The notes under the pieces were generated by a model. The model made no database searches and was not told the origin of the DNA. It worked only from the letters and a program-made list of their open reading frames with translations. From assembly GCA_017506865.1 (NCBI GenBank), contig JAFCMP010000516.1, forward strand, positions 496,001 to 560,000: DNA of 64,000 nt, in the 5' to 3' direction. Of the stretch, positions 2,120-62,700 are shown one piece after another. The stretch comes from Tribonema minus (Eukaryota > Sar > Xanthophyceae > Tribonematales > Tribonemataceae). Position numbers and translations under genes: made by a program. Numbering within the stretch: the stretch's first letter is position 1; every line of letters starts with the position of its first letter.

Positions 2120-5100
2120 ATGATAGCGCCCCACTTCCTGTATGCGCAGGCGAGGCGGCTGGGGCTGGTGGCGGAGGTGTCCGCGTCGTCAGATGAGGCG
2201 GAGCAGCAGGAGAATGAAGCTCAGGCAGAAAGGGGTGCGGGGAGCTACTGTTCATCCGACAAGTGCCCCTCTCCCAAGACGCTGCCCTCGCCGTCGACGC
2301 CAGATGTCCCCGACCACTGCATGGTCAAGGACCTTAACACAGGCGAGGTGTATCATGCGGAGAAGGAGGGGAAAACTCTGCTGAAGCGATACCAAGTCGC
2401 GGACCCTCGCAAGTTGCTTGACAAGTGAGTGACCAGCGAGGTCTTGCCTGCCTGTGTACAGCCAGTTGCCATACGGTTCATGACCCTTGCGAAAGCTCTG
2501 GCGTCTCGTGGTTCCTCATCTAGCCTGCAGGGCTTCATTGTGTCACACTTCAACCTCGACATCACGTGCGTGTTGAACTAAGGCACATTCACCTGTTAAC
2601 CTCTCATCCCTTGCCGTGCAGTGGATGGTGGGGCGTATCTCCCCCGGTCACCATGCCGCCACCCATGTTTCGCCTTTCGGAGAACGACGGCGATGCCGAG
2701 AGCAGCAATGGTGGCACCAATGGACCTCCCTCCCCGGCGCCATCGCCATCGAAAAGCGGCGGCCACAGCCCCTCCCGGCAGCGAGAGACCGGCTACGAAA
2801 ACTTCCACGACGGAGGCGTTACGGAGGAGCTGCACGAGGCCAGCGTGCTGCTGCCGGACTCCGCCGCGGAGCTCACGTTCTTGCGAGTGAGCGGCACCGG
2901 GACCGCCAGGGACCTCCAGGGCGGCGCGTACACGGCATATTTCGTGGAGGTGAAGTGCCTGGGTGCGGAGCCCCCGCAGTGGCGCGTCTACCGCCGCTAC
3001 CGCGAGTTCAAAACGCTCGACGAGGAGCTGCGCAAGGCGGGGTACCACGCCCCCCTGCTCCCCCCCCGCAAGCTCATGGGCCTCCTCGACCCGGACTTTG
3101 TCGAGCAGCGCCGCGTCGATCTCGAGTCGTGGCTCTACCAGCTCGTAGACTACCCCAACATGGACCCCGCCGCGGCGGACCCGCAGCACTTCGAGCCGTT
3201 TCGCGCGTTTCTGCTGGCGGATGCCGATAACCCCCCCTTCGACATGGAGGTGCACGACGATGAGGGGAGGGGGGGGGACGCGGCGGTGGCGGCGTGGGGG
3301 GAGCTGGGGGAAGCGCAGGCGGAGCCGGAGGAGGAGGCGGGAGGGCCGGGGGAGGTGGTCGTGCGGCAGAAAGTGGGGCTGGCGGAGTTTGATCTCGTGC
3401 GCGTGATCGGGAAGGGCTCTTTTGGCAAGGTGAGCTGCGCTGCGCATCTGATTTACAGGCCAGGCAGTGCTCAGATGGCTTTATGTGTGGGTGGCTGCGT
3501 CTGCTGGTGTCGCGGGTGCGCTCGACGAGCGTTGCGTTGCAGCGGGAGATTGCGCAACGCGCACGAACGCGCAGACGCGGCGGTACAACGAACACTACAG
3601 TGCAAGGGACGAGGTCTGTCAGACAACGCCCTGGAGGTTGTGAACACCGCACTTCACCGATGCATGTGCTGGCGCGTCATGTAGCGCAGACATCCTGTAC
3701 TGTCGATGGGCAGCTGTGCTCGTCCCGTCGTGTCTGCTCGGCGCAGCCCCTCGCGCAAGGCTGGTGCCATTGGGGATTGGTTGAGCGCTGCTGTGGCCTG
3801 ACCCTTACCCTAAAGCTAACCCCTCACCCTGAGCCGGAGGACCTTGTTGTACGTCAAGGTGACATCAGTTCCGACGCATGAGCAGACAACGCTCCGGCAC
3901 GCAGGGACTCCCACATAGCTGGCAATGCCGTGTCAGCCTGCAGCTGACATGATGCGCAGATGTCAAAGCATTGGTCTTGAGGTCTTTGCAGCCAGCATCT
4001 GACGTAGCTGCCTGGCATCTGTCTGGCTCAAGTGCCTCAGCGGTGCAGCTGCTCACAAATGAATGCTCACACGGCAGCTGTTCTAGTGTTTTCAGCTTGT
4101 AACACAGTGTTGAAGTTGCAGGTACTTGAGCACCATTTGTGAAGGCAATACAGTGGCGGCACCGACAGCACATCGTAATCAGGTCAAAAACTTTAGTCGA
4201 GCGACGTGTACTGAGACCGCACAAGAAGCAACTTCAAGTAAGGCTTTCGAGAAGTAACTTGAAGTAGACCTTATTCTCATGCCATCATGGAGGTGACAGC
4301 ATGGGCAATGGCACTCTGGTTTGGTGTGCCTGCACCACACAAGGATCACCACCTGCTACACAGTATTGTGTCTTGTACAAGCGATACTTGAACCAGTGAC
4401 GCTCGTGCAGCAAGTCGCGCCGCTATGCCAACCTCACGCACGCTCAAAGACACAGCTTCATCCAGTCTTCGGAGGTCTTAGACACAACCTTTGTCACCTG
4501 TCACACCACGTTGCGCAGTGAGCACACTACTGCCTCTCCCATCTCTCCAAACTTCAAGTTCTCATGCGCCATCTCGCCTCCCCGCCAAAAACTTCAACCA
4601 GGTGACGCTCGTGCGCAAGAAGTCCTCCGGGCGTTACTACGCCATGAAGGTGCTCGCCAAGGCGCACCTGGAAAAGTCCAAGCAGATTGAGCACACGCGC
4701 ACGGAGCGACGCGTGTTGGGCTGCATCAACCACCCCTTTATCGGTGAGAGTTTGCGCGTCGTTTGCTGGTAGGCTAGGCTTGCGGGTGTGAGAGGGGGGG
4801 ACGGTGAAGGGGGTGGCTAAGGGGTAGGCAACAGCGAGTCGCAAATAGGTGCATACATGCCACGTCCTGGACTGCATCAATCATCCCTTCATTGATGAGA
4901 ATTTACGCGCCATTTGCTGGTAGGCGCTGATACGCTTTCATGGAGCAGTGCAATTCACCCTCTCGCCCTCCTCCCTCCGCGACTCACAATTTGTGGCACA
5001 TCACATGCGCATCTAAGTTTGAAGTTCGCGCTCTTCCTCTTCGCTCGTGCCCCCCTGGAACCTGCTTCAGCCTCTATGCACTATGCGCTGGCAACGTTGC

Positions 5101-59700: not shown

Positions 59701-62700
59701 TGCAGCTAGGTTTTAATGACACACCTCATGACTTCTGCTTTCTGTTCCGCTGTTTATTGGTGCTCTCCCGAAAGATGCTGTCACTCACATCTTGCACATG
59801 CCACCGTGCTGATGCATTGCAGATGAGCCGCTTCCCGCTTGAGCCCTGCCTAAGCAGAGCGCTCGTGGCCTCTACCCTGCTGAACTGCACAGGTAAGCTT
59901 CCACCACAACTTGAATATGATAACATGATTGAAGTTTGGCCTGAAATAGTCGTCTGCAACCTGGTGAGAAGTATGATGTGAAGGTTCGCATCTGCTGCCC
60001 GGTGTATATTATGCGCAATCTTCATTTTGAATATTGCGCAAGTCTTTGCACTTGCGCCTGCGATGGTCATCTGCAACTTGGTGAGAATTATGATACTTTG
60101 AACTGTAGAGGTTCTGCATCTGCTGTGCGGTGCATCTGGTGTTAGGGTATTTGCATGATTGTCAATGTCCGCCATGGTCGACTTCAAGTGGCTAAAAGGC
60201 AGTGCGGATAGCACTAGACTACGCGTTTAGGTGCAATAGCTCCATTTTGTTTACAGCAGCATGAGAGTGTATACGTACACCTGGGCAGTGCAGTGGTGAC
60301 GAATCTTAGCATTTGCAATAACTGTGTACCATCTCATCGAATGCCCACAGCTCCAAGTACACCTCAGCATCAACACGAACAAGAAACCGATGAATGCCCA
60401 CAGCGTCACATTCGACATGAACAACACAATGATAGCGTCTCATGAGGCTTTCGGGCACCTCAACTCACTCTCGCTCGCCAACTGTGTCCCCATATGCGCA
60501 TGTACGACTGTGCAGATGAGATGCTGACGGTGGTGGCAATGCTCAGCGTGGAGACCATCTGGTACAAGCGCCCGCGGTCAACACAGGTGCTCACAACACT
60601 CGCTGCCTTCCAGTGTCACCCTACATGCAACTCTAAACTGGCCCCAACCGTAGCACACATACTCTGCCTCAAGGCGCCTGGATCATGCGGAACAAGAGCA
60701 GGGTGCCTTCTTAGGAGCGAATGCCACATGTACGCAACGTTCTGCAAGTATAGCGCCAGGTCATGTGATGCAAGGCTTGCTAGGCTTATGGGCCGCTCAT
60801 ATTCAGTGGCAATATCCCTGTGTGGCGTCATGTATTTATGGTTGTAATCGGGACTGACATGTTGAATCCTAGTAACTTGTGTGCGTAAAAGGTTCATGGT
60901 ATTGATCGCCATATTTCTACATCGACTCAGATCTTTCTACGATGAATATTTTTGCTGCACATATTCCCGTGCGGCACCTCTCTTATGACCTGATCGATTG
61001 ACAACTTGCTTCTGGTGCTCCACCGCACGCTGGTGTGTTCTAAATACATGTTGAGGTTAACCGTCTCACGTGCCGTACTGTGAGTTCAGTACATCTGCAC
61101 AGTACATATTCAGGGGTCGATCAGCCCAAACTCAATCACTTCAGAAGTGCTATATTTGGTTAATTGAGTACACTTCTCTTGATTGCCGCTGAGCAATACT
61201 GATGAAACGACTCAAAGACGTGCTTCTTGCATGACGAGCATGGCAACTGCATCGTTGAAGAACAAATCCAGTACACAAGTGCAGCCCAAGGACTTGTTCT
61301 CATGACAACCACATTATTGTTGCTAAATTTGGCAACCCTATATGATGAGCAACGCCAACGTTGCAGCAGAAACAGCGCGCATGCGGCAGCAGGACTCAGA
61401 TCCAACACACACCGTTTCTTTGGGGCAATCATGCTGAGGCCTATCAGCAGTGACTAATCCGAGAAATCAGTCATCACTCTTTGATGTCTGCAGCAAGACG
61501 CTCACCAACTTTGTACCATTACACAGGCTCATGTGCTTGCCGCTTGGCGTTTGCAGCGCGGCGAAGCCGATGAAGCGGCGGAGGCGGCGCACGCACGGCT
61601 GCGCCAGCCCCACGGGGATTGCCCTACGTATCTCCACGTGTTCAGGCAGTGGGAAAGGGCGGGCTGCAGCGATGAATGGGCGCGCAGCAACTTTGTGCGC
61701 ATTAGGTAATGCGCTTCATCAGATAGTACATCTCAGTGCACCGTTTTTGCAAGTAGTAGTCTGCCCTGCATGGTGGTATACGTTTCCTTTTTTGCAAGTA
61801 GTAGTCTGCCCTGCATGCTGGTATACGTTTCCTATGGCGCACAAGCAGGTAGCTTCAGACTGGTGGAATGTTCCCTTCGCACCGCCACGCCTCTACAGTT
61901 TTCTGGCAACGCGGATAGCAGTGGCACACGATCAAATGACGTCGAGCAGGTACGTCAATGTGGCACGCATCCAGTGCAGATAAACTGCTGGTGTGGTAGG
62001 TCAGCTGCGTTGAAGGCAGTCACCATCATGATGAATGAACTGCCTTGGGCTGTGACGTGCCGTCGGCGCTTGCAAGCTCGAACTGGCGGTGCAGCACTGC
62101 TCAGCAGCTTCGCTGTGCTCGAACATACATCCTTTGAAGTATATACACAGTATTATCATACTGATCATATTGTACTTGTGCCCCCATTGTGCTTTGAGCT
62201 ACGAGCATGCTCCTACATACTGACTTGTGCCACTCAGCATGCAGTCAGGTAGTGTTTCACAGTATGCAGTGTGTTTATCATCAGGAATGGTGTAGGAACA
62301 CGAGCCATTCCGGGTCTGCTTGGCACTGTGCTAGCGTTTGTGTTTGAGGCATTTACATATTGTTTTCACATTGTGAGTGGCCCGCGCTGACGCTTTCGCT
62401 ACTCATGCCTACATAGACGAAGCCATGAGCTGCGCCCTTCCATCATGCATCACCATTGTCTTGCTGCCCATGCCATAAACTTCCATGTGTGGACTAGCCT
62501 CAGCTGCAGTCACGTGACCCACACGATGCATCAACAAAGGCTCTTTTTTCAATGCCTGCTTTGTCTTTGACATCGCTCCCCAGGGCTCTGCGCATGGCGC
62601 GCAGCGTGCGCTCGCAGCTGCAGGCAGAAGTGCAGAGACTCGGGAACGCTGGCAGCGGCGGCGGCAGCAGCGGTGGCGGCAGCAGCAGGGGCGGCGGCGG

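What the first reader, a model, noticed from the sequence alone, without database searches (positions are those of the whole stretch)
4744..62000. Introns appear built by repeated tandem duplication of exon-intron junctions
Seen directly: in at least seven genes, introns contain same-orientation, progressively decayed copies of the edge of an adjacent exon together with its splice donor or acceptor (kinase introns 3, 4, 7, 8; CSP41 introns 4, 5, 6; unknown gene 26556; PRPP synthetase intron 3; coiled-coil gene; helicase introns 1 and 7). Some copies derive from 5' edges and some from 3' edges, so neither transposition of a fixed element nor retro-copying explains them. Inference: a local replication-slippage or repair process that starts or stops at splice junctions expands introns, leaving arrays of decoy splice sites. 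I know of tandem duplication as an intron-gain model, but not of a genome where it is this pervasive.
Basis: partly seen in the sequence, partly recalled or inferred. Interest (0 to 1): 0.88.

Follow-up and report, generated by a model that had tools for sequence, protein, structure and literature searches.

The report
Exon-edge copies fill an alga's introns
In the yellow-green alga Tribonema minus, many introns hold same-direction copies of the edges of neighbouring exons together with their splice sites, which looks like a common way for introns to grow that the splicing machinery must ignore.

Summary
Direct repeats outnumber inverted ones 67 to 3 in the window and 223 to 8 in 20 kinesin loci. 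Of 80 placed exon edges, 37 have copies in the adjoining intron; no match has the wrong polarity. In nine arbitrarily placed 8-kb regions, 25 of 54 predicted exon edges have an outward copy, against 0 of 21 exon middles, 33 of 168 intron-interior and 6 of 178 gene-free windows. Two annotated T. minus proteins skip the copies.

The copied unit spans the junction, with 15-102 exon bases (15 being the search minimum), so it does not start or stop there. Plain duplication with neutral decay also fits badly: exon-derived cores are more alike than both flanks in 10 of 10 arrays, and core and flank divergence are uncorrelated (0.05; simulation 0.66).

Best explanation: junction-spanning tandem duplications that are spliced out, with cores then refreshed by exchange with the selected exon. 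Duplication is well supported; refreshing is inferred.

The parts
4717..4925 (+). Kinase exon ending 4743 (donor) and one downstream copy of its 3' edge with donor region (4868-4925, offset 151)
5192..5964 (+). Kinase intron before exon starting 5902: three upstream copies of acceptor plus about 62 exon bases (junctions near 5325, 5538, 5690)
6010..6590 (+). Kinase exon ending 6099: downstream copies of its 3' edge with donor (6298-6392, 92%; second near 6196); related repeat 6155-6249 with 6498-6590
7304..7682 (+). Repeat array inside a kinase intron that touches no listed exon (offsets 117, 233)
8549..9077 (+). Kinase exon ending 8621: two downstream copies of its 3' edge (offsets 167, 341)
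9266..9588 (+). Kinase exon ending 9317: two downstream copies of its 3' edge (offsets 115, 227)
22086..22228 (-). CSP41 exon whose 5' end is 22113 and upstream copy 22193-22228 (36 bases, 100%)
22302..22619 (-). CSP41 exon ending 22572 (donor) and downstream copy of its 3' edge (offset 196)
22707..23244 (-). CSP41 exon whose 5' end is 22808 and upstream copies of acceptor plus up to 102 exon bases
23485..24333 (-). CSP41 exon ending 24309 (donor) and five downstream copies of its 3' edge (offsets 182-808)
28127..28371 (+). Repeat (offset 112, 77%) at the 3' edge of weakly predicted exon 28084-28175
35776..36823 (-). PRPP synthetase exon ending 36747 (donor) and seven downstream copies of its 3' edge (offsets 112-961; 73-77 exon bases in five of them, 28-32 in two)
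36946..37121 (-). PRPP synthetase exon whose 5' end is 36976 and one upstream copy (offset 143)
51816..52406 (+). DEAH helicase exon starting 52360 and three upstream copies of acceptor plus up to 47 exon bases (period about 181, 3.4 units)
56517..58212 (+). DEAH helicase exon starting 58150 and four measured upstream copies of acceptor plus 52-53 exon bases (junctions near 56520, 56933, 57694, 57998); a further weaker copy near 57821

Best explanation
Segments that span an exon-intron junction (nearest copies lie 93-280 bases apart) are tandemly duplicated. Using the outer, original splice site gives the old messenger RNA, so one copy of the exon edge with its splice site ends up harmlessly inside a longer intron; duplications within an exon are removed by selection. 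Because selection keeps the real exon unchanged, exon edge and copies go on pairing by homology, and unequal exchange or gene conversion adds further units and refreshes the exon-derived cores, while the intron-derived spacers decay by substitutions and gaps. Shown here: local direct copies, strict polarity, junction inside the unit, shared breakpoints within many arrays, excess at exon edges over exon middles and gene-free DNA, cores more alike than flanks. Inferred: that the copies are spliced out in general (two annotated proteins agree), and exchange as the cause of core similarity.
For: Polarity: 74 of 74 5'-edge matches upstream and 54 of 54 3'-edge matches downstream, plus 6 interior or unclear, over 130 exons of which 51 have copies; 0 matches of wrong polarity at 80 placed edges. 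No match covers both ends of any of 74 kinesin exon pieces. Exon middles 0 of 21 against edges 25 of 54 in nine arbitrary regions. Copies of one edge often share the exon-side breakpoint (66/66/66; 52/52/51/52; 53/53/53/52). In 10 arrays with shared breakpoints (30 copy-copy pairs) mean match is core 0.83, intron-side flank 0.60, exon-side flank 0.63, random pairs 0.35; the array mean is highest for the core in 10 of 10. Exon-part and intron-part divergence are uncorrelated (Spearman 0.05 in 40 real-copy pairs, 0.02 in 24 copy-copy pairs); a simulation of one duplication plus neutral decay gives 0.66, lowest 1% at n=40 0.38. Copies with at least 40 exon bases, at most 7% different, and no more than 10 intron bases aligned: 5 of 12 in the table, 0 of 66 in the simulation. 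None of 15 gaps in exon-derived parts has a length divisible by 3, so no sign of reading-frame constraint. T. minus CSP41 and PRPP synthetase proteins use the real edges and skip the copies.
Against: No exchange event was seen directly and no population or sister genome was at hand. Cores were found by their likeness to the exon, which favours well-kept cores; the simulation that allows for this used one duplication, donor side, real-copy pairs only. Gap openings per mismatch in exon-derived parts are 0.036 against about 0.10 simulated, which exchange alone does not predict. Third-position excess in real-copy pairs (353 of 2091 against 192 of 2116 and 159 of 2110; ratio about 2.0) exceeds the simulated 1.4-1.7. 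Adjacent intron is not detectably homologous (p<0.05) for 5 of 20 copies with exon identity of 0.9 or more and for 6 of 17 others. Not all arrays are tied to exon edges: over all loci, 57 of 124 arrays touch no listed exon, although the exon lists of the kinesin loci are incomplete. Copies of several edges differ in breakpoint (for example 65/35/39, 63/73), so several founding events are needed.
Confidence: 0.5

Rival explanations
1. Tandem duplication at random positions plus selection, with no exchange: all copies decay neutrally, and exon-derived parts look better kept only because spacer sequence has an intrinsically higher substitution and gap rate and because the real exon does not change.
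For: Pooled rates look close to neutral: real-copy mismatches 9.1, 7.5 and 16.9% at codon positions 1, 2, 3, copy-copy 15.5, 12.4 and 19.8%; no frame-keeping gaps; low gap rate in cores would fit a sequence-dependent gap rate.
Against: No correlation of core and flank divergence against 0.66 in simulation; exon-side-only matches 38 of 79 against 49 of 322. Few copies in gene-free DNA: 6 of 178 windows against 33 of 168 in introns, 588 of 26143 bases against 9537 of 42103; but in six arbitrary regions gene-free coverage is 1101 of 11073 bases, some of it at region ends next to exons.
Confidence: 0.22
2. Repair of double-strand breaks copies a short exon-edge segment and inserts unrelated filler (core-filler-core), so spacers never were duplicated.
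For: Among 26 recent pairs (92% or more alike), those that I could tie to exon edges are mostly a 36-80 base core with a 46-164 base gap between copies; telomere-type repeats, which are known repair scars elsewhere (recalled), are common in introns of many loci.
Against: Flanks on both sides of the core are alike between copies above random level, and 15 of 20 well-kept copies have homologous adjacent intron at p<0.05. Three recent pairs that I take as outside exon edges are head to tail (L014 7734, L017 2459, L018 5376).
Confidence: 0.13
3. The copies are kept because they work, for example as decoy splice sites that tune splicing or as alternative exon ends.
For: Cores are more conserved than flanks and poor in gaps; GT or AG kept in 68 of 81.
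Against: GT/AG retention (0.84) is about what exon identity of 0.89 predicts for two bases (0.80). All 15 gaps in cores would break the frame. I saw no consistent second splice signal at the far end of the copies (by eye). Annotated CSP41 and PRPP proteins skip them.
Confidence: 0.1
4. A process aimed at splice junctions.
For: Strong excess at exon edges in the arbitrary regions.
Against: Breakpoints lie 15-102 bases inside exons and at varied intron positions; selection explains the absence from exon middles.
Confidence: 0.05

Closest known systems
[quoted passage not shown]
   Same: Local tandem duplication of genic DNA whose product is hidden by splicing.
   Different: There an exonic segment with AGGT is doubled and a new intron appears between the copies. 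Here the unit contains an existing junction, and an old intron gets longer.
Potato RdRp duplication (PMC4974935, passages read)
   Same: The duplicated unit includes an intron-exon structure with branch site and acceptor.
   Different: One case with a new intron and added exon; here many edges and arrays of up to seven copies, the product apparently unchanged.
Introner elements (definition recalled; papers seen as listings)
   Same: Genome-wide change of introns in an alga.
   Different: Introners are dispersed near-identical families; these copies come from the adjoining exon.
Concerted evolution of tandem repeats by unequal exchange or gene conversion (recalled)
   Same: Members stay alike while flanks diverge.
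   Different: Here the anchor would be a protein-coding exon edge held constant by selection, and the members sit inside introns.

Membership tests
[quoted passage not shown] new intron between copies | tested here: not met
   Copies were sought across existing junctions and found at 37 of 80 edges: exon part 15-102 bases plus splice site and intron; probes from exon middles found 0 of 21 in nine arbitrary regions, 1 and 2 of 23 on the two sides in the window
[quoted passage not shown]
   67 direct to 3 inverted in the window; 223 to 8 in 20 kinesin loci; 80 to 0 in six arbitrary regions
Introner elements | Dispersed near-identical family present in many introns | tested here: not met
   95 cross-locus matches; the 60 best, which I printed, are mainly one repeat of about 125 bases in 7 loci and telomere-type runs, not exon edges
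Tandem or mutually exclusive exons | Copy holds a complete exon with both splice sites | tested here: not met
   0 of 74 kinesin exon pieces have a match covering both ends
[quoted passage not shown]
   Core-gap-core among recent exon-edge pairs, but flanks mostly alike between copies
Concerted evolution by exchange | Repeat cores more alike than flanks of the same duplication | tested here: met
   Array means in 10 of 10 arrays; copies were ascertained by core similarity
Concerted evolution by exchange | Exchange events seen between alleles or sister species | not testable with these tools
   No relatives of this genome are held

The most novel reading that the evidence does not exclude
In a whole genome, exon edges act as selection-protected recombination seeds: they are continually re-copied, splice site included, into the adjoining introns, so introns grow out of their own exon ends and the spliceosome works among arrays of near-perfect decoys.
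Probability: 0.42. Interest if true: 0.85.

Novelty: new variant of a known kind. Interest (0 to 1): 0.72.

Why it matters
How introns lengthen is hard to document because the source sequence is usually gone. Here the source is visible at about a fifth to a half of the tested exon edges (10 of 54 to 25 of 54; 37 of 80). It offers a natural test of how the spliceosome tells a real site from copies that share up to about 100 bases of exon, and of whether purifying selection on exons feeds repeat growth in neighbouring introns. A paper on genetic transformation of T. minus exists (PMC7139823, title and abstract opening seen in a listing only), so bench tests may be possible.

Tried and rejected
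Rejected: (1) chance or low complexity: inverted controls are near zero. (2) Insertion of a shared element: cross-locus comparison. (3) A start or stop at junctions: breakpoints. (4) Coding constraint on copies: an early impression from a few third-position differences; the counts leave little room for it and the gaps break the frame, though the third-position ratio is somewhat above my simulation. (5) A simple core-filler-core model, suggested, weakened. (6) Uniform tandem duplication over the genome: gene-free DNA has few copies, with a higher figure (1101 of 11073 bases). (7) The motif AACTTCAA: abundant but it looks like a short simple repeat.

Weak points and dropped rows: first pairwise alignments of overlapping windows aligned some copies to themselves (I used only the others). 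Rfam gave no match. The home-made gene model over-predicts small exons and sometimes calls copies exons, 3 predicted exons were removed as copies of a better one. In one search I left out 8 predicted exons as likely copies or repeats, matches whose partner lay in another listed exon, and offsets over 2000; one of the 8 (24309-24417, CSP41) is a real exon and is included. Searches used 25 of 31 refined kinesin introns (score over 8). Fifty-base comparisons agree: copy-copy exon part higher in 19 of 20 edges. blastn appears to hide offsets under about 50 bases. Pair counts are not independent, since several pairs share an array. Paper lists were capped (12-20 rows of up to 62,655 hits).
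Full report
Organism. The window is bases 496001-560000 of contig C513 of a 158,181,000-base assembly in 554 contigs. Two window proteins match annotated T. minus proteins almost exactly: CSP41, JKP88DRAFT_188667, 99% over the whole query, and a phosphoribosyltransferase-like protein, 100% over 92% of the query. Both are listed on a contig of 786,794 bases, and C513 has that length. 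T. minus is a xanthophyte.

Observation. Self-comparison of the window gives 67 direct and 3 inverted pairs at E<1e-3, the largest direct offset being 1783 bases. They give 223 direct and 8 inverted pairs at E<1e-4. Of 74 kinesin exon pieces, 23 have copies of the 5' edge, 14 of the 3' edge, 4 have interior matches, 0 have a match covering both ends, 42 have none (one piece can count twice).

Exon edges. A simple gene model trained on these exons was applied to the window and three arbitrary regions. Over 130 exons, 51 have copies; matches are 74 upstream and 0 downstream for 5' edges, 54 downstream and 0 upstream for 3' edges, and 6 interior or unclear. At 80 edges placed by splice consensus and homology (50 kinesin, 24 window, 6 in L025), 37 have copies (20, 13 and 4) and no match has the wrong polarity. 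This is what tandem duplication across a junction must give if the outer splice site is used.

Control. Nine 8-kb regions were taken at round coordinates chosen before looking; two of them had no exon over the cut-off. With 40-base probes, 25 of 54 exon edges have an outward copy, 1 of 54 a copy on the wrong side, exon middles 0 of 21, intron interior 33 of 168, gene-free DNA 6 of 178, reverse-complement nulls 0 to 1. Kinesin edges give 17 of 50 with null 1. In the window the same test with model-derived edges is weaker: 10 of 54 edges, 1 and 2 of 23 exon middles on the two sides, 31 of 139 intron interior and 9 of 164 gene-free. Six of the nine regions compared with themselves give 80 direct and 0 inverted pairs. 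By bases, in the window and the first three regions, repeats cover 9537 of 42103 intron bases and 588 of 26143 gene-free bases; in the six regions 5750 of 22941 and 1101 of 11073. Arrays without a listed exon also exist: 57 of 124 over all loci, where the exon lists of the kinesin loci are incomplete.

Splicing. The annotated CSP41 and PRPP synthetase proteins run over the edges that I call real and skip the copies, among them the seven copies behind the PRPP exon ending at 36747. Joining two kinesin genes at the real edges gives motor domains without stops. No RNA reads were available, so use of copies at low level is open.

Anatomy of the copies. Exon parts are 15-102 bases (15 being the search minimum), mostly 20-80; intron parts of the matches 2-588. 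Copies of one edge often share the exon-side breakpoint, and sequence beyond it is alike between copies; other edges have copies with different breakpoints. So founding duplications are followed by multiplication of the unit. Breakpoints do not sit at the junction. GT or AG is kept in 68 of 81 aligned copies, about what two bases at 0.89 identity would give.

Age and decay. Pooled substitutions look close to neutral: real-copy 192/2116, 159/2110, 353/2091 at codon positions 1, 2, 3; copy-copy 236/1523, 188/1521, 295/1489. Gaps in exon-derived parts are rare, 15 at 3833 sites against 218 at 6965 intron-derived sites, and none of the 15 has a length divisible by three. But cores and spacers do not age together. 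Between copies, exon-derived parts differ by 16.6% and intron-derived parts by 22.0% where both align, and 45 of 70 copy-copy pairs align on the exon side only. Divergences of the two sides are uncorrelated (0.05 and 0.02). A simulation of duplication and neutral decay through the same search gives 0.66, and a well-kept exon part (40 bases or more, 7% or less different) without alignable intron in 0 of 66 cases, against 5 of 12 in the table. In 10 arrays with shared breakpoints cores match 0.83 and the two flanks 0.60 and 0.63, random 0.35. Copies were picked by core similarity, which inflates this; the simulation allows for that only for real-copy pairs on the donor side.

Interpretation. I take the arrays as products of junction-spanning tandem duplication, tolerated because the extra exon edge is spliced out, and kept young in the core by exchange with the real exon, whose sequence selection holds constant. 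That would also explain why arrays gather at exon edges and are scarcer in gene-free DNA, without a process aimed at junctions. The exchange step is inferred. Faster mutation of spacer DNA, break repair with filler, and function of the copies remain as rivals.

Comparison with print. I read passages (find) of PMC3443670 and PMC4974935. The known model doubles an exonic AGGT segment to make a new intron; here an existing junction is doubled and an old intron grows. Ten searches of the library listed, in the rows shown, nothing that by title or abstract opening describes such arrays in Tribonema or elsewhere; lists were capped, and no paper reporting the T. minus genome appeared in them.

Noticed in passing
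window 21289-21411; L011 2675-2801; L015 2086-2210; L025 5714-5802; L026 6181-6260; L020 7279-7342; L008 5797-5865: A dispersed repeat of about 125 bases, 80-91% alike, in both orientations, in 7 of the compared loci; looks like a short mobile element.
   Followed up: no
window 56106-56139, 57884-57908, 6111; L013, L004, L006, L021 and others: Telomere-type TTAGGG/CCCTAA hexamers exceed expectation in many kinesin loci (L013 35 against 5.0) but not over the whole window (30 against 31.4). They may mark break repair.
   Followed up: partly
window 57025-57085 with 57589-57650: One of three inverted repeat pairs in the window (89%), inside the helicase intron that is full of exon-edge copies.
   Followed up: no
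G000 C412:318906-319135 (L002, L003): Another place in the genome matches the same kinase exon edge twice, 167 bases apart, so a related gene seems to have its own copy.
   Followed up: no
window 58734-58828, 61744-61833, 11166-11248, 41717-41779: Young short tandem duplications (units 32-47 bases, 93-97%) occur within genes and in gene-free DNA, unlike the exon-edge arrays.
   Followed up: no
noncoding DNA of the fetched loci and window: AACTTCAA and its complement rank among the commonest noncoding 8-mers (117), apparently as short CTTCAA simple repeats.
   Followed up: partly
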